Assembly (NCBI GenBank): GCA_913775315.1
Contig: CAJYIX010000010.1
Span: 62,001-126,000, forward strand
DNA from: an uncultured Sphingomonas sp.
GTDB taxonomy: Bacteria > Pseudomonadota > Alphaproteobacteria > Sphingomonadales > Sphingomonadaceae
Direction: 5' to 3'
DNA: 64,000 bases
The translations under genes were made by a program, and so were the position numbers. How positions within the stretch are numbered: position 1 is the first letter of the stretch; every line of letters starts with the position of its first letter. The notes below the pieces were generated by a model. It was not told where the DNA came from. It worked only from the letters and a program-made list of their open reading frames with translations, and searched no databases. Shown here in pieces: positions 38,023 through 48,329 of the stretch.

Positions 38023-39213
38023 CTAGTCGCCCCGCACCACCAGCATCAACACACCGCCCGCCAGCGTCAGCGCGGCCAGAACGAGGAAGGCGAGACCGAA
38101 CCCCTCCGGCCCCGTCAGTGCCCAAGCGATCGGCGGGCCAATGATCGATGGCGCAGTGTTGGTAAGGTTGAGCAGGCCGAGGTCCCGGCCCCGCCGCCGC
38201 ACGCTCGGCAGCAACAGCATCGCGAAGCCCGCGTGCAGCGCGGCGAAGACCGCCGATCCGATCGCGAACAGCGCATAGCCGATCGCGCCCGCCAGCCAGT
38301 GATCGGCGGTGCCCATTACCACCAGGCCCGCCGCGGCCGCCGCTGCCGCCGTGAACAGGATCGCGCGCCGCCAGCCCGTGCGGTCCGACAGCCGCCCCGC
38401 CACCAGTGCCGCCGGGATGGCGAGCAGGTTGACCAGCGTCAGGAGTTGGCCGGTGCGCGCGGCGACCGTATCCGACGACGCGCCGTCTGCCACCCCGCGC
38501 AGATAGTAGAAGAGATAGAGCGCGACGACGTTGCCCGCGATCTGGACGAGCAGCCGTGCGAACCAGGCGGCGGCCAGATCGCGCGGGCGTGTCGGCGCCG
38601 CATCCACCGCTTGCGGCGCGACCGGGGCAGCGCGCGCGAACAGGAAGGGCAGGATCAGCAGCGCCGCGAACAGCGGGATGACCGCGAGCCGGATGCCGAT
38701 ATCGATCGCCGGCATCGCCACCAGCAGCGCTAGGAATGCGGACGCCAGCGGCGCGCCGAACGCGAGCAGGCTGCTGGCGAAACCGATCTGCCCCTCGGGC
38801 ACCTCGTCGGCCATGATCGCTAGCAGAGGCGCTATCAGCAGGTTCACTGCGACCTGCACGCCCAGCACCGCGGCGAGGATCCCCGTCGGCGTGTCGGCCA
38901 GCGCGATTGCCGGATAGGCGAGCATCAGCGCCGCAAGGCCGAAAGCGACCCAGCGCCTGCGCCCGCCGCCGCGCTCTATCGAGCGATCGCTGGCCCATCC
39001 GGCAGCGATGTTGGCGACGCTGGCGGCGATCGCGCCCGCGACCGCGACGATGGTGGCAAGGCCGATGCGCGCATCGCCTGCCACCGCCTCGATCCGCATC
39101 GGCAGGAGCAGGCTGAACAGCGGCAACCAGGCGATCACCCCGCCCGCACTAGCGACGGCGTACAGCATCAGAAATGCAGGGGGTTGTCGAGAAACGGGGG
39201 GCGATGCGGCCAT
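38023..39213 (-). CDS. MFS transporter, probably for a sugar
   Basis: A 396-residue permease with about 12 helices. Recognisable are the loop WASDRSIERGGGRRRWVAFG after helix 2 and its C-terminal counterpart GRLSDRTGWRRAILF. The organisation resembles the GPH/SLC45-like sugar transporters often linked to TonB-dependent receptor loci in sphingomonads. It is divergent from the receptor gene and shares a 189-bp promoter region with three palindromes, so the LacI protein encoded nearby probably controls both (inference). Substrate unknown. Confidence 0.8.
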   Translation of the reverse strand: MAASPPVSRQPPAFLMLYAVASAGGVIAWLPLFSLLLPMRIEAVAGDARIGLATIVAVAGAIAASVANIAAGWASDRSIERGGGRRRWVAFGLAALMLAYPAIALADTPTGILAAVLGVQVAVNLLIAPLLAIMADEVPEGQIGFASSLLAFGAPLASAFLALLVAMPAIDIGIRLAVIPLFAALLILPFLFARAAPVAPQAVDAAPTRPRDLAAAWFARLLVQIAGNVVALYLFYYLRGVADGASSDTVAARTGQLLTLVNLLAIPAALVAGRLSDRTGWRRAILFTAAAAAAAGLVVMGTADHWLAGAIGYALFAIGSAVFAALHAGFAMLLLPSVRRRGRDLGLLNLTNTAPSIIGPPIAWALTGPEGFGLAFLVLAALTLAGGVLMLVVRGD

Positions 39214-39263
39214 GCGTCGCCTTATGCCGCCTGCCTGTTCACGGCCAAGTCCTTCGCACCCAA

Positions 39264-39275
39264 GAGAACGTTCCC
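39264..39275. promoter_or_regulatory. Candidate LacI-family operator 1 (GAACGTTC)
   Basis: GAGAACGTTCCC contains the perfect 8-bp palindrome GAACGTTC (39266-39273). The same core recurs at 39340-39347, 74 bp away. It lies 51 bp upstream of the divergent MFS start, between MFS and receptor genes. Confidence 0.6.
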
Positions 39276-39279
39276 ATAT

Positions 39280-39289
39280 TTAGCGCTAA
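39280..39289. promoter_or_regulatory. Candidate LacI-family operator 2 (TTAGCGCTAA)
   Basis: A perfect 10-bp palindrome TTAGCGCTAA with CG at its centre and further partial symmetry outside. Many LacI-family operators have a central CG and this general form. It lies 10 bp from operator 1. It may be a site for the local LacI protein or for a second regulator. Confidence 0.55.
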
Positions 39290-39337
39290 CATCTACGACG
39301 GCCACGGTCACCTTGACAAATCAGGGAAAATCATCGA

Positions 39338-39351
39338 GTGAACGTTCTCAT
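39338..39351. promoter_or_regulatory. Candidate LacI-family operator 3 (GAACGTTC) near the receptor promoter
   Basis: GTGAACGTTCTCAT contains GAACGTTC (39340-39347), a repeat of operator 1 in opposite orientation over GAGAACGTTC. A TTGACA hexamer (39313-39318) lies about 20 bp upstream, so a repressor bound here would cover the -10 region of the receptor promoter; no good -10 was seen. Two equal sites 74 bp apart, about seven helical turns, could allow looping. Confidence 0.6.
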
Positions 39352-39402
39352 GAGACGCGCTCCATCGGGATAGCGCGCGGGTTCAAAAGGGGAGGAAAGG
39401 GC

Positions 39403-42400
39403 ATGTTGAGCGTCCGTGCTCGTCAGTTTTCGCGATTCGCCGTCGGTGCGTCGCTGAGCGTTCTGGGCGGCGTGCCCTCGATCGCCATGGCACAGGATGC
39501 CGCCGCGACGGTCGGCAATCCCGGTCCCTCCGATATTCAGGAAACGGCGCCACCGGCGGGTGAGGCGGGCGACGACATCGTCGTGACCGGCATCCGCGCC
39601 TCGCTTCGCGAAGCCGTCGATATCAAGCGTAACGCACAGGGCGTCGTCGATGCGATCTCCGCCGAGGATATCGGCAAGTTCCCCGACACCAACCTGGCCG
39701 AGTCGCTCCAGCGCATCACCGGCGTGTCGATCGACCGTTCGAACGGCGAGGGTTCGACCGTCACCGTTCGCGGCTTTGGCCCAGAGTACAACCTCGTCAC
39801 GCTGAACGGTCGCCAGATGCCGACCTCGACGCTGGGCGATGGTGCCAGTGCGCCCAATTCGCGCTCGTTCGATTTCGCCAATCTCGCGTCCGAGGGCATC
39901 GCCGCGGTCGAGGTGTATAAGACCGGCCGCGCCGCCGTCCCGTCGGGCGGCATCGGCTCGACGATCAATATCCGCACGCCCCGCCCGCTCGACCGCCCCG
40001 GCTTCCGCGGCTCGATCGCGGCGCGCGGCGTGCTCGACACCTCGCGCAACGAGGGCAACCCGATTACCCCCGAAGTGTCGGGGATCGTGTCCAAGACCTT
40101 CGGCGACGACCGTTTCGGTATCGTCCTGTCGGGCACGTACCAGCGCCGCAAGGCGAGCGTGAACTCGGCCAGTGTCGGCTTCCGCGACGGCTTCCTCGGC
40201 TCGGAGAACAACTGGGGCACGCTGCCGCAGAACGGCACGCCGGGGTCGGAGCGGATCACCAACCGGCCGGGCCCGAACGACGTCTATGAAATCCCGCAGA
40301 GCGCCGCCTACGACCTGCTCGATATCGACCGCGAGCGGATCAACGGCCAGCTCGTGCTGCAGGCAAAGCCGACCGACAGCCTGACCGCGACGGTCGACTT
40401 CACCTATTCGTCGAACCGGGTCGAGGTGCGCGACAGCAGCGTCGGCATCTGGTTCAACTTCGGGAATACCTCGTCCGAATGGACCAACGGCCCCGTTGCC
40501 GGCCCGGTTTTCTATTCGGAGCAGTTCGATCCGGGCAAGGATCTGTCCTATTCGCAGTCGCTGACCGCGAACAAGTCGATCAACAAGTCGCTGGGCGGCA
40601 ACCTGACCTGGGATGCGCCGGGCGGCGTCACTGTCTCGCTCGACGTCCACCACTCGACCGCGGAATCAAAGCCGACCAACGATTACGGGTCGAGCACGTC
40701 GATCGGTGGTGCGATCTTCGGCGTCCGTTCGCAGCGGATCGACTTCACCGGCGACCTCCCGATCATCAATTACCAGATGTATCCGGGCGTCGATCCCTTG
40801 AACCCGTCGCTCATCACGCCGACGGGCAACGCGTTCCGCAACGCATATTTCAAGGACACGATCAACCAGGTGCAGCTGAAGGGTCATTACGACCATGACG
40901 GCGGCTTCCTCGACAGCATCGATGCCGGCTTCTCGTTCGTCGACAATCAGGTCCGTTCCGCCTACGGCTTTATCCAGAACGAGACCTGGGGCGGCGTCGA
41001 TCCGCGCGGCCAGTCGTTCGGCGCGGCGGCGGTGCCCGACGACTTCTTCAAGCAGGTCAGCCTGCCCGACAAGTTCAAGGGCTTCGACGGGAGCGGCGGG
41101 CTGCCGCCAGCGATCTACACCTTCAACTTCGAGCAGATGGCCGAGCTTCTCCGCTCGCAGTACAATATCTGTTCGAACCCGCAGACGGGCACGGTCCAGC
41201 AGGGCACCTGCCTCGCCAACTATACCGTCGACCGGCGGATCGGCGAAAAGACGATCTCGCCCTTCATCCAGGGCAATTTCAGCTTCGACGTGAACGGCAA
41301 TCCCGCGCACATCATCGCCGGCGTCCGCTACGATCAGACCAACGTCAATTCGTCGGCGCTGGTGCCGATCCCGGTGGGCACGCGCTGGACCGGCGCCAAC
41401 GAGTTCGCGCTGATCTATTCGCCCAATTCGGCGTTCACGACGTTCAAGGGCAGCTATGCCAACTGGCTGCCGGCGATCGACTTCGACATCGAGCCGGTGC
41501 GCAACGTCAAGCTGCGCGCGTCGTACAGCCACACGATCACCCGCGCCGACTATGCCAGCCTTCAGGGTGGGCTCGAGCTCGGGTCCAACCCGCGTATCGG
41601 CGGCGGCACCGGGTCGCTCGGCAACCCCAACCTCGTCCCCTACAAGTCGAAGAACATCGATCTGTCGGCGGAGTGGTACTACACCCGCGAAAGCTACATC
41701 TCGGTCGGTTATTTCAACAAGGATGTCAGCAACTTCATCGGCACGACGCAGGTGGATCAGTCGGCGTTCGACCTGCGCAATCCGGGGTCCGGCCCGCGCT
41801 ATCGCGCGGCGGTCGCGGCGCTCGGCACCACCGATGCGGTGCGGGTGCGCGACTATATCCTGCGCAACTATCCGGGATCGTCGCAGGTCACCGGCACGAC
41901 GCAGGCGGGCGACGCCACCTACCTGACGGGCAACATCAACGGCTTGCCCGAGGACGACCTGTTCAACTTCCAGGTGACGCAGCCGTTCAACAGCGACCAG
42001 ACCGCCAACATCAACGGCTGGGAATTCGCGATCCAGCATCGCTTCTGGAACACGGGGCTGGGCGTCCTGCTTAACTACACGATCGTCAACGGCGACACGC
42101 AGTACGACAACGCGCTCGACCCCAATGTCGGCCAGTTCGCGCTGGTGGGGCTGAGCGACACCGCCAATGCCGTCGCCTACTATGACAAGAACGGCATTCA
42201 GGCGCGTATCGCGTACAACTGGCGCGAGGGCTTCTATGCCGGCGGCGCGTTCGATCCGACCTATGTCGAGGATTACGGCCAGTTCGACGCCAGCGCGAGC
42301 TGGGAGTTCGTCAAGGGGCTGACGGTGTTCGCCGAAGGGATCAACATCACGAACTCGAACCGCCGCGGCCACCGCCGGTCGGAGAACTTCGTGACCTTCG

Positions 42401-42450
42401 CGCAGCCCGGCTATGCTCGCTATCAGGCTGGCCTCAGGCTGAACTTCTAA
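39403..42450 (+). CDS. TonB-dependent receptor (large, carbohydrate-locus type)
   Basis: A 1015-residue outer-membrane active transporter powered by TonB-ExbBD. It has a signal peptide cleaved near Ala30 (VPSIAMA-QD), a TonB box around [11 protein letters not shown] (residues 57-67) and a plug domain ([40 protein letters not shown]). A long beta-barrel follows, ending in aromatic Phe (QAGLRLNF). Size and plug signature fit the proteobacterial subfamily often found in polysaccharide-use loci of Caulobacter, Xanthomonas and sphingomonads. ATG 39403 with GGGGAGGAAAGG upstream. It leads the halogenase-SapC-cupin genes. Confidence 0.93.
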
Positions 42451-42523
42451 GAGGCCAAGGGGGGGCGGGGTGGCGTTTTCCGCTGCCCCGCGGCACAGTC
42501 GCGGCGATGAGGAACGGGCGCCA

Positions 42524-44056
42524 GTGTCGGGTTCGGTAAAGCGGGTCGTGATCGTCGGCGGCGGTACCGCCGGCTGGCTGGCCGCCGCGCGCATCGCTGC
42601 GGCGGCGCGGCCGGGCGCGCTGGACGTGACGCTGATCGAGGCGCCGGACATTCCGACGATCGGGGTGGGCGAGGGGACGTGGCCGACGATGCGCCGCACC
42701 CTGTCGCGCATCGGTATCGCCGAAGCCGAGTTCCTGACCGCGTGCGACGCGAGCTTCAAACAGGGGTCGCGCTTCATCTGCTGGCGCGACGGGACCGATG
42801 CCTATCACCATCCTTTCACGCCGCCGATCGAAGGGTCAGCGGCGGCGCTGATGGCGGGATGGCGCGGTGAGGGCGCGTTCGCCGATGCTGTCTGTGCGCA
42901 GCCGGCCGTGGCCGATCGCGCGCTTGCGCCGCGCCAGCCGGCGATGCCCGACTATGCCGGGGCGGTGAACTATGCCTATCACCTCGACGCGGGGAAGTTC
43001 GCAGGCGTGCTTCGCCGCCACGCGACCGAGCGGCTGGGCGTCGTCCACATCGCCGATCATGTCGAGCGCGTCGTGCCCGGCGAGGACGCGACGATCGCCG
43101 CGGTTGCGACGCGCGCGCATGGCGAGGTCGCGGGCGACCTGTTCATCGACTGCACCGGCCATGCGGCGCTCTTGATCGGCGGGCATTTCGGCGTGCCGTT
43201 CGTCGATTGGTCGGACGTGCTGTTCAACGACCGCGCGCTCGCGGTGCAGGTGCCGGTGGCACCTGGATCGCCGGTCACCGCCGTTACCGATGCGACCGCG
43301 CACGAGGCGGGCTGGATCTGGGACATTGGCCTGCCGACACGGCGCGGCGTGGGCTGCGTCTATGCGTCAGCGCATATGAGCGACGATCGCGCGGCGGCGG
43401 TGCTGACCGATTACCTGCGCCGCACCGCGCCCGATTGCGATCCGGCCGCGCTGTCGTTCCGCCAGCTTCAATTCCGATCGGGGCACCGCGAGCGGTTCTG
43501 GGCGGGCAATTGCCTCGCCATCGGGCTCTCGGCGGGGTTCCTGGAGCCGCTCGAAGCCTCGGCGATCGTGCTGATCGAGTTGTCACTCGATGCGCTGGTC
43601 GAGGACTTTCCGGCCGATCACGCTGCGATGGCGGGCGCGGCGGCGCGGTTCAACGTGCGGTTTCGCCAGCGGTGGGACCGGATCGTCGCGTTCCTGAAGC
43701 TCCATTACGTGCTGAGCGAGCGCACCGAGCCTTACTGGCAGGCGCATCGCGACCCCGCCTCGATCCCGGCTGACCTTGCGGCAATGCTAACCCGCTGGCG
43801 GCACCGCGCGCCGATGCCGAGCGACTTCGACGCGGTGGACGAGCTGTTCCCCGCCGCCAGCCACCAGTACGTCCTCTACGGCATGGGCGCGCCCGTGCCG
43901 CCGCCGCCCGCGATGCGGGTCGAGGACGAAGCGGCGGTGGCCGAGCGGATGGCGCAGCTTCGCCAGCGCGTGCGGACGCTGACCGCCAGCCTGCCCACGA
44001 ACCGCACCTATCTCGACAATCTGGCGGCCCGGCCGCTTCTCAGGGAAGCACGCTGA
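42524..44056 (+). CDS. Tryptophan-halogenase-like flavoprotein 1 (divergent motif)
   Basis: A 510-residue FAD-dependent protein of the tryptophan halogenase family. It has the N-terminal FAD motif [14 protein letters not shown], the catalytic-lysine segment [11 protein letters not shown] (Lys79, the position of the halogenating lysine in PrnA) and [11 protein letters not shown] (Glu341-Glu344). The family motif WxWxIP reads WIWDIG (Trp264-Gly269), so the proline is replaced. GTG 42524 with GAGGAA upstream is preferred; a GTG at 42470 would add unconserved residues. The stop overlaps the SapC start (TGATG). The substrate is unknown. Confidence 0.85.
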
Positions 44057-44763
44057 TGGCCAACCACGCGATCCTCGACCCCGAACGCCACCGCGACCTG
44101 CGCGTCGCCGCCGGCTACGGCGCGGGCTATGGCGACGCGCTGATGAGCGCGATCGTCGTCCCCGACGAGTTCCGGCGCGTCCAGAACGACTATCCGATCC
44201 TGTTCCGCCTCGATCTGGAAAGCGATCGCTTCGACGCGCTGGCGATGTTCGGGTTCGAGGGGGGCGAGAACCTCTATCTGGACGGCGATCGTTGGGATGC
44301 CGGCGCGCTGCCGCTGTCGGTCGAGATCCGCCCGTTCCTGATCGGGCGCACGCCGGAGGGGCAGGGGCAGGTGCACCTCGACCTCGACAGCCCGCGGATC
44401 GACCCGATGGGCGTGCGGGTGTTCGACGAGGAGGGGGCGCCGACCCCCTATCTCGAGGCGGTGATCGAGAAGCTGCGCGCGCTCGACACCGGCCACCACC
44501 GCGCGGGCGCGTTCTTTGCGGCCCTCAAGCGCCACGATCTGCTCGAGCCGCTGACGCTGGACGTGACGCTGGCGGACGGGGCGCGTCACCGGCTGATCGG
44601 CTATCACGTGATCGACGAGGCGAAGCTTGCCCGGCTCGACGACGCCAGCGTCGCGGAGCTTCACCGCGAGGGGCATCTGATGCCGGCCTTCATGGCGCTC
44701 GCCTCGCTCACCAATCTGTCGGGCCTGATCGCGCGCAAGAACCGGCGGAGCGGCCATGGCTGA
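44056..44763 (+). CDS. SapC family protein
   Basis: A 235-residue protein matching the SapC family by its N-terminal YGDALMSAIVVPDEFRRVQN and DYPILFRLD, the mid-part GENLYLDGDRWDAGALPLSV and the C-terminal region. The family was named after an S-layer-linked Campylobacter gene, but its biochemical role is unresolved. In alpha- and gammaproteobacteria it recurs beside TonB receptors and tryptophan-halogenase-like genes. No signal peptide is seen. It overlaps the halogenase gene by 1 bp and the cupin gene by 8 bp, indicating one coupled operon. Confidence 0.85.
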   Translation: MANHAILDPERHRDLRVAAGYGAGYGDALMSAIVVPDEFRRVQNDYPILFRLDLESDRFDALAMFGFEGGENLYLDGDRWDAGALPLSVEIRPFLIGRTPEGQGQVHLDLDSPRIDPMGVRVFDEEGAPTPYLEAVIEKLRALDTGHHRAGAFFAALKRHDLLEPLTLDVTLADGARHRLIGYHVIDEAKLARLDDASVAELHREGHLMPAFMALASLTNLSGLIARKNRRSGHG

Positions 44764-45784
44764 GGCCGATCCCGGCATCACAACCGCCCTGCCCGCGGTC
44801 CGTGAGGTCGAGGCGCGCGACGCCGCGACGCTCGATCGCCTGCTGGCCGAAGCCGAGGCGCCGTTCGTCGTCCGCGGCCTCGTCGCCGACTGGCCGCTGG
44901 TGCAGGCGGGGCGACGCTCGGCAAGCGACGCGCGCGCCTATCTTCTGACGCATGCGAAGCAGCGGGCGTTCCCGGTATCGGTAGGCGGCGAGGCGGACGG
45001 GCGGCTGTTCTACGACGCCGGCATGGCGATGAACTTCCGCATGATGAATGCCGGGCTGGCCGAGATTTTTGTGCGGATCGAGGAGGGAGAGGCGAACGGC
45101 ACTGGGCCGGCGATCTATCTCGGCTCGATCGACATGCACGACTATTTCGATGGGCTTCACGCCGCCAATCACGTCGACCTCGGCGAGCGGGCGGCGCTGG
45201 CGAGCATCTGGATCGGCACGCGCACGCGTATCGCCGCGCACAACGACGTGCCGCACAACCTCGCTTGCGTCGCCGCGGGTCGCCGCCGCTTCACGCTGTT
45301 CCCGCGCGAGCAGTTCGCCAATCTCTATCTCGGCCCGGTCGACAACACGCCCGCCGGGCGCGCGATCAGCATGATCGACCTGCATGCGCCCGACCTCGAC
45401 CGCTTTCCTCGCTTCGTCGATGCGCTGGCCGCCGCGACCGTCGCCGATCTGGAACCGGGCGACGCGATCCACATCCCGGCGCTGTGGTGGCACCATGTCG
45501 AGGCGCTCGATCCCTTCAACATCCTCGTCAACTATTGGTGGCGCGAGAGCCCGCGATGGCTGGGGCATCCGCAGGATGCGCTCAACCACGCGCTGCTGGC
45601 GATCCGCGACCTGCCCGACGCCGAAAAGGCGCACTGGCGGCAGATGTTCGATCATTATGTCTTCGGCGACCGCGAGGCGGCGGCCTCGCATATCCCCGAG
45701 GGCGCGCGCGGCGTGCTCGATCCGCTGACGCCCGAGACGGCGGGGCGGCTGCGCGCCTATCTCCTCCGGCAGCTCAGCCGATGA
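44756..45784 (+). CDS. Cupin-like (JmjC-type) iron/2-oxoglutarate oxygenase family protein
   Basis: A 342-residue cupin_8/JmjC-like protein. The likely metal triad is His162 and Asp164 (RIAAHNDVPHNLACV) with a distal histidine in ALWWHHVEAL (His246 or His247). A basic residue in RRRFTLFP could hold 2-oxoglutarate. Relatives include FIH-type hydroxylases. ATG 44756 lies inside the end of the SapC gene. The stop overlaps the second halogenase start (ATGA). A role modifying the same unknown substrate as the halogenases is inferred from context only. Confidence 0.85.
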   Translation: MAEADPGITTALPAVREVEARDAATLDRLLAEAEAPFVVRGLVADWPLVQAGRRSASDARAYLLTHAKQRAFPVSVGGEADGRLFYDAGMAMNFRMMNAGLAEIFVRIEEGEANGTGPAIYLGSIDMHDYFDGLHAANHVDLGERAALASIWIGTRTRIAAHNDVPHNLACVAAGRRRFTLFPREQFANLYLGPVDNTPAGRAISMIDLHAPDLDRFPRFVDALAAATVADLEPGDAIHIPALWWHHVEALDPFNILVNYWWRESPRWLGHPQDALNHALLAIRDLPDAEKAHWRQMFDHYVFGDREAAASHIPEGARGVLDPLTPETAGRLRAYLLRQLSR

Positions 45785-47277
45785 CGCCGAAGCGTATCGT
45801 CGTCGCCGGGGGCGGCACCGCGGGCTGGATGGCCGCGGCCGCGATCGCGCGTACGATGGGCGGCGCGGCGACCGTGACGCTGGTCGAATCTGAGGCGATC
45901 GGCACGGTCGGCGTCGGCGAATCCACGATCCCGCCGCTCGTCACCTACAACCGCCTGCTCGGCATCGACGAGGCGGCGTTCATGCGGGCGACGAGCGCCA
46001 CCTTCAAGCTTGGCATCCTGTTCGACGGCTGGCGCGACGGCCAAGACCGCTATTTCCACAGCTTCGGCGTGACAGGGAAGGACCACTGGGCCGCGGGCTT
46101 CCAGCATTACTGGCTGAGCGGGCTGGAGCGGGGGCAGCACGCCGCCTACGACGACTATTGCCTGGAACTCGTGGCGGCATTGCAGGGCCGGTTCGCGCAC
46201 CTGCCCGACAATGCGCTCAACTACGCCTATCAGCTCGATTCGAATGCCTATGCCCGCTTCCTGCGGTCGATGGCCGAGGGCGACGGCACGGTCCGCATCG
46301 AGGGGCGGATCGGCGAGGTCGAGCTCGATGGCGAGAGCGGCGACATCGCCGCGCTGGTGCTCGACGGCGGGCATAGGGTCGAGGGCGACCTGTTCCTCGA
46401 CTGCACGGGCTTTCGCGCGTTGCTGATCGAAAAGGCGCTGCACGCAGGGTATGACGACTGGAGCCACTGGCTCCCCTGCGACAGCGCGATCGCGGTGCAG
46501 ACCGAGAATGTCGGCCCGCCCGTCCCCTATACCCGCGCGATGGCGCACGATGCCGGTTGGCAATGGCGCATCCCGCTCCAGCACCGCACGGGCAACGGCA
46601 TCGTCTGGTGCAGCCGGTATCTCAGCCGAGAGGCTGCGCTCGAACGGCTGCTCGGCAATGTCGAGGGGCGCGTGTTGACCGAGCCCAATCACTTGGTCTT
46701 CCAGACCGGTGCGCGCCGGAAACAGTGGCACCGCAACTGCATCGCCATCGGGCTGTCGGGCGGGTTCATGGAGCCGCTGGAATCCACCAGCATCCACCTG
46801 ATCCAGCGCGCCATCCTGCGCCTCGTCCGGATGCTGCCGCTCGGCCCGGTCAACCCCAGCGACGTGGCCGAGTTCAACGACCAGCAACTGACCGACATGG
46901 TGCAGATCCGCGACTTCCTCATCCTTCATTACAAGGCGACCGACCGCCGCGACTCTGCCTTCTGGCGACAGGCGGCGGCGATGGACGTGCCGGAGACGCT
47001 GGCCCAGAAGATCGCGCTGTTCCGCGAGACGGGCCGCGTCTTCCGCCGCAACGAGGAACTGTTCGCAGAGAACAGCTGGGTGCAGGTGATGCTGGGTCAG
47101 GGGATCGTGCCGCGATCGTGGCACCCGATCGCCGCGAAGCTGAGCGATGACGAACTCGCGCGGTTCCTGGGGAGTGTCCGCGAGCAGGTCGCGCGCACGG
47201 TCGCGACGCTGCCGAGTCATGCGGCCTATGTCGCCCGCTATTGCGGGGCCGCAGCGCCCGCCGACAAGGCCGCCTGA
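45781..47277 (+). CDS. Tryptophan-halogenase-like flavoprotein 2 (canonical motifs)
   Basis: A 498-residue flavin-dependent halogenase family protein with intact family signatures. They are FAD-binding RIVVAGGGTAGWMAAAAIAR, catalytic-lysine segment SATFKLGILF (Lys76), WQWRIP (Trp260-Pro265) that normally blocks monooxygenase activity, and GGFMEPLESTSIHLIQRA (Glu331-Glu334). Such enzymes need FADH2 from a separate reductase, which is not encoded here. Start ATG 45781 overlaps the cupin stop. Characterised relatives from similar loci halogenate indole in vitro, but the natural substrate is unknown. Confidence 0.9.
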   Translation: MTPKRIVVAGGGTAGWMAAAAIARTMGGAATVTLVESEAIGTVGVGESTIPPLVTYNRLLGIDEAAFMRATSATFKLGILFDGWRDGQDRYFHSFGVTGKDHWAAGFQHYWLSGLERGQHAAYDDYCLELVAALQGRFAHLPDNALNYAYQLDSNAYARFLRSMAEGDGTVRIEGRIGEVELDGESGDIAALVLDGGHRVEGDLFLDCTGFRALLIEKALHAGYDDWSHWLPCDSAIAVQTENVGPPVPYTRAMAHDAGWQWRIPLQHRTGNGIVWCSRYLSREAALERLLGNVEGRVLTEPNHLVFQTGARRKQWHRNCIAIGLSGGFMEPLESTSIHLIQRAILRLVRMLPLGPVNPSDVAEFNDQQLTDMVQIRDFLILHYKATDRRDSAFWRQAAAMDVPETLAQKIALFRETGRVFRRNEELFAENSWVQVMLGQGIVPRSWHPIAAKLSDDELARFLGSVREQVARTVATLPSHAAYVARYCGAAAPADKAA

Positions 47278-47282
47278 TCCCC

Positions 47283-48329
47283 ATGGCCAGACGCCGCCAG
47301 GCGGTAACGATCAAGCATGTCGCGGCGGATGCCGGGGTATCGCTCCAGACCGTCAGCCGCGTCATCAACAAGGAAACGAGCGTCCGGCCCGAAATGGCCG
47401 AGCGCGTGCAGGCATCGATCGACAAGCTGGGCTACGTCCCGTCGATCGCGGCGCAGCGGATGGGCGGGTCGCGCAGCTACCTGATCCTCGCACTCAACGA
47501 TCGCGAGCGGACGATCGCCGACTGGCGCGAGCGGCAGGGCACCGACTGGGTCGACCAGATGATGCTGGGCGGGATGGTGAAGGCGGCCGAGCATGGCTAT
47601 CGCCTGATCGTCGAACTGGTCGACACGCACAGCGACCATATCGAGCGCGAGCTGTCGGCGGCGCTCGCGGCGCTGCGGCCGGATGGCGTGATCCTGACCC
47701 CGCCGCATTCGGAAAACCCGCTGATCCTGAAGCTGCTCGAGGCGCAGCATGTCAGCGTCGCGCGGATCGGGTCCTTGCGTGACGGATACGGCTTTGCGCT
47801 GACGATGGACGACGAGCGGGCGGCGCGGCTGGCGACGGCGCATCTGGCCGAACTCGGCCATGCGCGGATCGGCTTCATCGCCGGGCCCGAGGCCTATGAG
47901 CTGAGCGGCTGGCGGATCGAGGGTTGGCGACAGGCGATGGCGGCGGCGGGACTGGCGACCGAGGAGCTGCTGACGCGCGGCGACTTCGGCTATGAATCCG
48001 GGCTGGCGGCGACCGGGGCGCTGCTGGACGCAGGCGCGACGGCGATCGTCGCGAGCAACGACCGGATGGCGCTAGCGGTGCTGGAGGTCGCGCGCGCCCG
48101 CGGGCTATCGGTGCCGGGCGACCTGTCGCTGGTAAGCTTCGACGACACGCCGATCGTCCGCTTCACACATCCGCCGCTGACCGCGGTGGTGCAGCCGATC
48201 GCCGAGGTGACAGCGCGGGCGGTGGAGCGGATCATCGCCGAGCAGGCGGGCGGGGACTTCGATCCGGCGCCGGAGGTGGTCCCGGCCAGCCTGACGATCC
48301 GCGCCTCCACCGCGCCGCCCGGCCAATAA
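47283..48329 (+). CDS. LacI family transcriptional regulator
   Basis: A 348-residue repressor-type regulator. The helix-turn-helix and hinge are at residues 9-60 (TIKHVAADAGVSLQTVSRVI; LGYVPSIAAQRMGGSRSYLI). A periplasmic-binding-protein-like effector domain follows (AIVASNDRMALAVLEVARAR; LSLVSFDDTPIVRFTHPPLT). It starts 5 nt after the second halogenase gene and is probably the last gene of the operon, giving autoregulation. The candidate operators are in the 39.2-39.4 kb promoter region. The likely inducer is a sugar or sugar derivative. Confidence 0.92.
   Translation: MARRRQAVTIKHVAADAGVSLQTVSRVINKETSVRPEMAERVQASIDKLGYVPSIAAQRMGGSRSYLILALNDRERTIADWRERQGTDWVDQMMLGGMVKAAEHGYRLIVELVDTHSDHIERELSAALAALRPDGVILTPPHSENPLILKLLEAQHVSVARIGSLRDGYGFALTMDDERAARLATAHLAELGHARIGFIAGPEAYELSGWRIEGWRQAMAAAGLATEELLTRGDFGYESGLAATGALLDAGATAIVASNDRMALAVLEVARARGLSVPGDLSLVSFDDTPIVRFTHPPLTAVVQPIAEVTARAVERIIAEQAGGDFDPAPEVVPASLTIRASTAPPGQ

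What the first reader, a model, noticed from the sequence alone, without database searches (positions are those of the whole stretch)
38023..48329. Halogenase-SapC-cupin system tied to a TonB receptor and a LacI regulator
Sequence shows one coupled operon: TonB receptor, halogenase-like 1, SapC, cupin/JmjC-like, halogenase-like 2, LacI, with a divergent MFS gene sharing three palindromes. Two halogenase-type flavoproteins, an iron-oxygenase-like cupin and SapC form a compact enzyme set whose substrate is unknown. There is no glycoside hydrolase or flavin reductase in the locus. Halogenase-like genes near TonB receptors are known in this group, but the chemistry and why SapC and a cupin accompany them are not settled. 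A plausible role is modification (halogenation, hydroxylation or another oxidation) of an imported glycan-linked aromatic or of a peptide.
Basis: partly seen in the sequence, partly recalled or inferred. Interest (0 to 1): 0.8.

Follow-up and report, generated by a model that had tools for sequence, protein, structure and literature searches.

The report
Sugar-receptor locus with companion oxidation enzymes
A Sphingomonas gene block that probably takes up a beta-1,3-glucan carries a set of oxidation enzymes that, in related bacteria, go with one type of outer-membrane sugar receptor more than with one sugar, so the enzymes may chemically modify the receptor protein itself.

Summary
A tight operon (TonB-dependent receptor, flavin halogenase 1, SapC, JmjC-type cupin, flavin halogenase 2, LacI) lies beside a divergent MFS gene, with two LacI-type operators conserved in relatives. 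It is a partial carbohydrate-utilisation (CUT) locus: related loci add GH16, GH55 or GH3 genes, so the ligand is most likely a beta-1,3-glucan.

The enzyme set goes with the receptor. In 99 Sphingomonadales genomes, 24 of 24 matches of at least 470 bits to this receptor have SapC within 1.8 kb; 3 of 14 weaker ones have it within 3 kb. All 24 also have halogenase 2 and the cupin; in four of them glycoside hydrolases of other families were identified. Three loci with the same LacI and GH3 (two also GH16) but another receptor lack SapC and cupin. SapC is fused to a halogenase in two genomes.

My reading: SapC is the halogenase's adaptor, and the set oxidatively modifies a protein, most likely the partner receptor; W529 and W662 are candidate sites. 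Chemistry and substrate are inferred. Both structure predictions failed.

The parts
38023..39213 (-). Divergent MFS transporter (inner-membrane sugar transporter, inferred)
   Evidence: PF07690 66.3 bits, cut-off 33.4; an MFS homologue is also in L025-L030
39263..39276 (.). LacI-type operator 1, AGAGAACGTTCCCA
   Evidence: Core GAACGTTC in 6 of 6 aligned upstream regions; one of 5 sites with at most 2 mismatches to TGAGAACGTTCTCA in the 3.25 Mb genome
39279..39290 (.). Third palindrome TTTAGCGCTAAC
   Evidence: Same in window, L025, L026; altered in L027; absent in L028, L029: weak
39313..39318 (+). TTGACA, possible -35 box
   Evidence: Read by eye; same in 5 of 6 aligned regions; not reported by the promoter scan
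39337..39350 (.). LacI-type operator 2, AGTGAACGTTCTCA, 74 bp from operator 1
   Evidence: GTGAACGTT in 6 of 6, one later substitution in L028
39403..42450 (+). TonB-dependent receptor, TIGR01782 type; carries clade-specific W529 and W662
42470..44056 (+). Flavin halogenase 1 (GWIWDIGL / EPLEASAI type)
   Evidence: PF04820 401 bits; best solved relatives 9ltb 634 bits, 2pyx 482 bits
44056..44763 (+). SapC (proposed adaptor of the halogenase)
   Evidence: PF07277 206 bits; halogenase-SapC fusions elsewhere
44756..45784 (+). Cupin_8/JmjC-type oxygenase
   Evidence: PF13621 212 bits; FIH/JMJD5-like; HxD and WWH motifs kept
45781..47277 (+). Flavin halogenase 2 (GWQWRIPL / EPLESTSI type, BrvH-like)
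   Evidence: PF04820 609 bits; 6y1w 680 bits, 6frl 435 bits
47283..48329 (+). LacI-family regulator of the locus
   Evidence: PF00356/PF13377; orthologues near GAACGTTC sites in L191 and L193, none in L190 and L192

Best explanation
The locus is a LacI-controlled uptake locus, most likely for beta-1,3-glucan oligosaccharides. The TBDR imports the sugar, the MFS protein takes it across the inner membrane, and a laminarinase-type GH16 gene is elsewhere in this genome. The two flavin halogenases, SapC and the JmjC-type cupin are not sugar catabolism genes. They form a companion module that belongs to this clade of receptor. SapC acts as a cytoplasmic adaptor that works with the halogenase. The flavoproteins (halogenation, or hydroxylation of an aromatic side chain) and the cupin (hydroxylation) oxidatively modify a protein, most likely the partner TBDR before its export, with tryptophans W529 and W662 as candidate sites. 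Shown: gene content, operon layout, conservation of operators, the 24-of-24 link of module and receptor clade, halogenase-SapC fusion. Inferred: sugar identity, enzyme chemistry, SapC as adaptor, the receptor as substrate, the two tryptophans.
For: Receptor link: 24 of 24 TBDR matches of at least 470 bits in 99 genomes have SapC within 1.8 kb, 3 of 14 weaker ones within 3 kb; all 24 also have halogenase 2 and cupin. Sugar independence: within the 24, the 12 nearest have GH16 in 7 loci, GH3 or GH55 in 3 more; of the 12 others, Pfam found GH10/GH3, GH5/GH3, GH9 or GH3 in four. L191-L193 keep LacI and GH3 (L192, L193 also GH16 and MFS) with another TBDR and lack SapC and cupin. Adaptor: two fused halogenase-SapC proteins beside TBDRs; SapC overlaps halogenase 1 by 1 bp here. 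Surface-protein theme: six of 18 halogenase-free SapC loci outside Sphingomonadales lie near type I secretion or efflux parts, an RTX protein, a DUF4214 protein or flagellins, and C. fetus sapC is in the S-layer locus (PMC4943207 passage). Chemistry: Lys and Glu kept in 58 of 59 halogenases that passed my filter, HxD and WWH in 26 of 26 cupins. Sugar: the GH16 of L029 matches laminarinases; Sphingobium RAC03 has TBDR-SapC-cupin-halogenase-GH16-LacI-MFS-GH3. Precedents: QhpG hydroxylates a protein tryptophan (PMC7876137 abstract, passages); BrvH has an open active site that may take larger substrates (PMC5945002 passages).
Against: No chemistry was seen. The enzymes show no signal peptide by eye and the receptor is exported, so modification would have to precede export. 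On the TBDR tree the sugar label changes 3 times, hardly more than SapC (2) or cupin (2), and full module composition changes 12 times, so the tree alone does not separate sugar from receptor; that rests on L191-L193 and on four loci with other GHs. Eight of the 12 more distant clade loci had no GH identified. Clade-specific residues also arise by descent: 24 columns mark the clade, and W662 is Gln in L030, which keeps SapC, cupin and halogenase 2. W529 is also a Trp in 5 of 21 other rows. An earlier broader comparison found no invariant aromatic residue separating halogenase-linked from other TBDRs. Orphan SapC in 17 Sphingomonadales loci does not lie beside secretion genes apart from weak ABC hits in 3. 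The SapC and TBDR models were unusable. Operon co-inheritance could also give the 24-of-24 link. Within the window alone the two operator matches are not exceptional (34 of 100 shuffles reach 2).
Confidence: 0.4

Rival explanations
1. The module acts on a small imported molecule, for example an aromatic group attached to plant or algal glycan, or a free indole or phenol brought in by the receptor.
For: BrvH brominates free indole in vitro (PMC5945002 passages); the genes stand in one operon with an importer; the sugar label also follows the receptor tree closely (3 changes).
Against: The same SapC-cupin-halogenase 2 set goes with receptors beside GH16 and, in four loci, GH10, GH5/GH43-like, GH9 or GH3 genes, and loci with the same LacI and GH genes but another receptor lack SapC and cupin. 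Beta-1,3-glucan carries no usual aromatic group (general knowledge).
Confidence: 0.2
2. The module modifies another protein that the receptor clade needs, such as a TonB/ExbB partner or a surface lipoprotein, or SapC is itself the modified carrier.
For: Fusion of halogenase and SapC; SapC W80 is in 31 of 31 halogenase-linked SapCs.
Against: W80 is also in 86% of 35 SapCs without halogenase, and its region seems missing from the fused SapC (read by eye). I did not search the 24 loci for other constant genes.
Confidence: 0.2
3. The enzymes make a halogenated or hydroxylated signal or toxin that is secreted when the sugar is present.
For: Flavin halogenases elsewhere serve natural-product pathways (general knowledge).
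Against: The block's seven proteins include no carrier protein or other biosynthetic enzyme; this genome has 12 halogenase matches, 10 of them in loci with an over-cut-off TIGR01782 receptor.
Confidence: 0.12

Closest known systems
CUT loci (carbohydrate utilisation containing TBDR; Blanvillain et al. 2007, PMC1790865, passages seen)
   Same: TBDR, inner-membrane transporter and regulator together
   Different: No degradative enzyme found in the window locus (a 'partial' CUT locus); 'halogenase' and 'SapC' do not occur in that paper's main text ('cupin' not queried)
BrvH and related bacterial flavin halogenases (6frl, 6y1w, 9luq)
   Same: Halogenase 2 matches 6y1w at 680 bits, 9luq 539, 6frl 435; its E-S-T-S motif fits E349, T351, S352 of BrvH (PMC5945002 passages)
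   Different: Natural substrate of BrvH unknown; the words TonB and operon do not occur in that paper
9ltb and 2pyx, solved 'tryptophan halogenases'
   Same: Halogenase 1 at 634 and 482 bits with the GWxWDI and EPLEASA motifs
   Different: The call gives no substrate for them
QhpG, peptidyl-tryptophan hydroxylase (PMC7876137)
   Same: Flavoprotein with a fold like FAD-dependent halogenases that acts on a protein tryptophan
   Different: Halogenase 1 reaches 38 bits of a 240-bit cut-off: not a QhpG
FIH / JMJD5 hydroxylases
   Same: Cupin matches at 67.7 and 53 bits with HxD and WWH motifs
   Different: The 2-oxoglutarate lysine of FIH (K214, recalled) is Arg in 26 of 26
Campylobacter fetus SapC (S-layer sapCDEF locus, PMC4943207 passage)
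   Same: SapC name (that the family is named after it is recalled)
   Different: S-layer locus; not compared by sequence here

Membership tests
CUT locus | TBDR gene | tested here: met
   TIGR01782 606 bits
CUT locus | Inner-membrane transporter beside it | tested here: met
   MFS 38023-39213; sugar specificity not tested
CUT locus | Sugar-related regulator beside it | tested here: met
   LacI with conserved operators
CUT locus | Carbohydrate-degrading enzyme beside it | tested here: not met
   None of five GH families queried is in the window; present in relatives; own GH16 is on contig C37. Filed only as a partial CUT locus
Flavin-dependent halogenase (PF04820) | Family profile | tested here: met
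   401 and 609 bits, cut-off 21
Flavin-dependent halogenase (PF04820) | Catalytic Lys and Glu, glycine-rich FAD motif, WxWxI | tested here: met
   Both window proteins; Lys and Glu in 58 of 59 aligned
Flavin-dependent halogenase (PF04820) | Halogenation activity | not testable with these tools
   Needs assay
SapC family PF07277 | Family profile | tested here: met
   206 bits, cut-off 28.9
JmjC/Cupin_8 Fe(II)/2OG oxygenase | HxD...H iron triad | tested here: met
   HxD and the first His of WWH in 26 of 26; that this His is the ligand follows recalled FIH numbering
JmjC/Cupin_8 Fe(II)/2OG oxygenase | 2OG-binding Lys | tested here: inconclusive
   Arg in all 26
QhpG | NCBIfam NF049967 cut-off 240 bits | tested here: not met
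   38.2 bits

The most novel reading that the evidence does not exclude
A class of sugar TonB-dependent receptors is post-translationally modified in the cytoplasm: SapC recruits the nascent receptor to a two-flavoprotein plus JmjC enzyme set, which brominates or hydroxylates clade-specific residues (candidates W529, W662) to tune sugar binding, gating or phage and bacteriocin recognition. SapC would then be a general adaptor for exported surface proteins, from S-layer proteins to receptors.
Probability: 0.22. Interest if true: 0.92.

Novelty: new variant of a known kind. Interest (0 to 1): 0.62.

Why it matters
Trp-halogenase-like genes are frequent beside sugar-type receptors here (12 matches in this genome, 10 in receptor loci), and the natural substrate of a studied relative, BrvH, is unknown (PMC5945002). 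The result turns that into a narrow question: is the partner receptor the substrate? It names two residues, three natural contrasts (same regulator and sugar genes with another receptor) and a fused halogenase-SapC enzyme that could be purified as one chain. If true, it would be an unexpected type of outer-membrane protein modification.

Tried and rejected
Glycan-linked aromatic as the substrate: weakened, not excluded. QhpG membership: rejected, 38 of 240 bits. An aromatic residue common to all halogenase-linked TBDRs: none found; best were W350 78% v 6%, W529 72% v 6%, W940 90% v 28% of 40 halogenase-linked rows (the window counted twice) and 18 others; a first try had a wrong control set and is not used. 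SapC W80 as a special site: rejected, general in the family. Enrichment of outer-membrane efflux proteins near SapC: the listing is cut, so no statistic was made; the count (10 of 18 loci against 3 of 17 and 3 of 32) uses queries taken from the same loci and is circular. SapC structure (mean pLDDT 40.6) and TBDR structure (29.3): too poor, no fold search made. SapC alignment against viral contigs: no conserved stretch. SapC has no sequence match in the PDB up to E 10.

Rows dropped before counts: the 59 halogenases are those above 120 bits and 420 aa after an overlap filter, which dropped at least one weak one (own C39:23156-24439, 291 bits). One search scored at most 8 candidates per genome, so further TBDRs may exist. 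Two SapC rows (L068, L082) were left out of the alignment. L025 and L026 were left out.

Literature: searches with halogenase, TonB, SapC, cupin, laminarin or Xanthomonas terms. Among the rows listed (20 of 27, 30 of 249, 25 of 100, every hit in the others) no title pointed to this module. Most subscription papers are not held, so this is no proof of absence. Papers seen as passages: PMC5945002, PMC7876137 (with abstract), PMC1790865, PMC5507952, PMC11337851, PMC6680617, PMC4911050, PMC4943207, PMC6374484; all others in listings only.

Labels recalled, not from a call: that 4pew/4pex/4tz1 are a GH55 exo-beta-1,3-glucanase; FIH residue numbers; origin of the SapC family name; mass shifts.
Full report
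WHAT IS THERE. The window lies in a Sphingomonas-like genome (G000, contig C10; nearest named relatives). Six genes read in one direction: TBDR, halogenase 1, SapC, cupin, halogenase 2, LacI; an MFS gene is divergent. The gaps are 19 bp, then overlaps of 1, 8 and 4 bp, then 5 bp (sequence), with no + strand terminator-like site between 42450 and 47283. The two halogenases are 36.5% identical and of two types: GWx[12 protein letters not shown] and GWxWxIPL/EPLESTS. In 58 of 59 halogenases that passed my filter the catalytic Lys and Glu are kept; the exception, a second halogenase-like protein in L066, has Arg and Gly there. The cupin keeps HxD and WWH in 26 of 26 and has Arg where FIH has its 2-oxoglutarate Lys (FIH numbering recalled).

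REGULATION. Upstream of the receptor are two GAACGTTC sites 74 bp apart. In the window, L025, L026, L027, L028 and L029 the first core is unchanged in 6 of 6, and the second is GTGAACGTT in 6 of 6 with one later substitution in L028, while L027-L029 diverge around them (window, L025 and L026 are near-identical and count as one). Of five sites with at most two mismatches to TGAGAACGTTCTCA in the genome, two are these; with up to three mismatches there are 32 sites against 12 for the control pattern. In the window alone two such sites are not unusual (34 of 100 shuffles). The third palindrome is kept only in the nearest sequences. GAACGTTC sites also stand in L191 and L193, near orthologues of this LacI, but not in L190 or L192. 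Binding was not tested.

WHICH SUGAR. Six named or MAG loci hold the block (L025-L030; L030 lacks halogenase 1 and has a DUF6445 gene upstream of the TBDR). L028, L029 and L030 add a GH16 gene, L029 a GH3 gene, and L030 a protein that matches 4pew at 566 bits (recalled as a GH55 exo-beta-1,3-glucanase). The GH16 of L029 is closest to a GH16 protein (6xof) and then to laminarinases. Plasmid pBSY17_1 of Sphingobium RAC03, from an algal phycosphere, is annotated TBDR, SapC, cupin, halogenase, GH16, LacI, MFS, GH3, GH43. The window's genome (98% complete) shows one GH16 gene, on contig C37, 77% and 72% identical to those of L029 and L028. Beta-1,3-glucan is therefore the likely ligand; this is an inference from neighbours. 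By the CUT definition (PMC1790865, passages) the locus is a partial CUT locus.

THE MODULE FOLLOWS THE RECEPTOR. SapC occurs in 56 of 99 Sphingomonadales genomes, 96 matches, and in 72 of 200 genomes drawn from the phylum. I fetched 40 of the 96 loci, picked mostly from the lower scores to avoid an orphan core SapC: 23 had TBDR and halogenase beside SapC, one had halogenases without a TBDR seen, 16 had neither beside it. Because those loci were chosen for SapC, I made a test that was not: the window's TBDR was searched in the same 99 genomes (38 matches at E 1e-60, at most 8 candidates scored per genome) and compared with the SapC positions. Of 24 TBDRs with at least 470 bits, 24 have SapC within 1.8 kb; of 14 weaker ones, 3 have it within 3 kb and one more at 3.4 kb (Fisher p 3e-7, which ignores relatedness; the 470-bit line was drawn after seeing the gap between 477 and 349 bits). 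All 24 loci, the seven not seen before included, also have a halogenase of type 2 and the cupin; halogenase 1 is in 10 of 24.

THE MODULE FOLLOWS THE SUGAR LESS WELL. Among the 24, the 12 nearest receptors (978 bits or more) have GH16 in 7 loci and GH3 or GH55 in three more; the window locus and L195 show none. The 12 others (476-575 bits) showed no GH16 with my single-sequence queries; Pfam gave GH10 and GH3 in L089, GH5 and GH3 (with a GH43-like gene) in L090, GH9 in L065, GH3 in L099; the other eight were not scanned with Pfam and none was identified there, though L070 and L074 have what looks like a GH3 fragment at the edge (read by eye). The SapC-cupin-halogenase module of a Sphingomonas parapaucimobilis plasmid has no annotated GH within 10 kb at all. 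Conversely, L191, L192 and L193 carry the same LacI (65-72% identical) with GH3, and L192 and L193 also GH16 and MFS, but a receptor of another clade and one divergent halogenase with neither SapC nor cupin in 19.5 kb. L190 shows only the LacI and MFS with my queries. On a tree of 40 TBDRs SapC changes twice, the cupin twice, halogenase 1 five times, the sugar label (two coarse states) three times and the full module composition 12 times (rows partly chosen by SapC). The tree by itself therefore does not separate receptor from sugar; the separation rests on L191-L193 and on the four loci with other hydrolases. In the window's own genome, halogenase genes stand near GH95 (L020), GH31 (L017) and GH2-type (L019) genes, and a SapC-cupin pair stands in a GH43/arabinofuranosidase locus at the edge of a contig that begins a TBDR (L023). 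In Catenovulum, TBDR, halogenase and SapC stand beside an agarase.

SAPC WORKS WITH THE HALOGENASE. In two genomes of different families one frame holds both: L168, 667 aa, Trp_halogenase 395 bits and SapC 67.8 bits; L169, 661 aa, 399 and 41 bits, each beside a TBDR. The fused SapC is shorter than the free one. Free SapC has few invariant residues (H12, E38, P86 in 66 of 66) and no solved relative by sequence. Its role as adaptor is inference. Of 20 regions fetched outside Sphingomonadales (10 chosen for long frames, 10 mostly for high scores), two hold the halogenase module (L177, L186) and 18 do not. Six of those 18 stand near exported surface proteins or their secretion parts: efflux and HlyD proteins in L180 and L188 (same genus code), a type I secretion ABC protein and efflux protein in L170, an open frame of 2,876 aa with RTX repeats in L181, a DUF4214 protein in L189, flagellins in L171. 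There is no proper null for this count. In seven of the 18 the SapC frame is 546-653 aa; the five I read have an apparent membrane segment and a proline-rich or low-complexity part after SapC. In C. fetus sapC belongs to the S-layer locus (PMC4943207 passage), and SapDEF is called a type I secretion system in PMC6374484 (passage). Orphan SapC in 17 Sphingomonadales loci shows no such neighbours beyond weak ABC hits in 3.

CANDIDATE SITES. In 29 receptors of the clade against 21 other halogenase-linked or TBDR-search rows and 17 TBDRs without halogenase in 1.5 kb, 24 columns mark the clade. Two are tryptophans: W529 (29 of 29; 5 of 21, in different local sequence; 0 of 17) and W662 (28 of 29, Gln in L030; 0 of 21; 0 of 17) (receptor numbered from the ATG at 39403, 12 Trp in all). 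Shared descent alone can give such columns, and glycan binding is another reason for surface tryptophans. They are offered as a test, not as a result.

VERDICT. What is unusual is that the oxidation enzymes go with the receptor clade in every case examined. Confidence: uptake locus for a beta-1,3-glucan about 0.75; SapC as a direct partner of the halogenase about 0.7; a protein as the substrate about 0.5; the partner receptor as that protein about 0.35.

Noticed in passing
MT835646.1 (12036-15221) and MT837902.1, phages collection: Two 'Bacteriophage sp.' records from faeces encode a halogenase 54% and 50% identical to halogenase 2; the first also encodes a SapC (38%). Possibly bacterial contigs filed as phage.
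   Followed up: no
phages collection: 65 phage records, mostly of Synechococcus, Prochlorococcus and other cyanophages, encode a protein like halogenase 2 at under 60% identity; why phages carry it is open.
   Followed up: no
L016 (own genome C39:15000-34999): Four consecutive Trp-halogenase matches, one of lower score, with a cupin, beside a TBDR and a GH3-like gene.
   Followed up: partly
L066:1578-3086: Halogenase-like protein beside a normal halogenase, with Arg for the catalytic Lys and Gly for the Glu: a possible inactive partner.
   Followed up: no
L170-L176: SapC domain in frames of 546-653 aa; the five read have an apparent membrane segment and proline-rich or low-complexity part.
   Followed up: partly
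L171:3-6075: Six flagellin-like frames in tandem next to a long SapC gene; one was confirmed by Pfam.
   Followed up: no
L202, L203: TBDR with a single divergent type-1 halogenase and no SapC, another module state.
   Followed up: no
L167 (NZ_CP155750.1): TBDR-SapC-cupin-halogenase module directly beside type VI secretion genes on a Sphingomonas parapaucimobilis plasmid.
   Followed up: no
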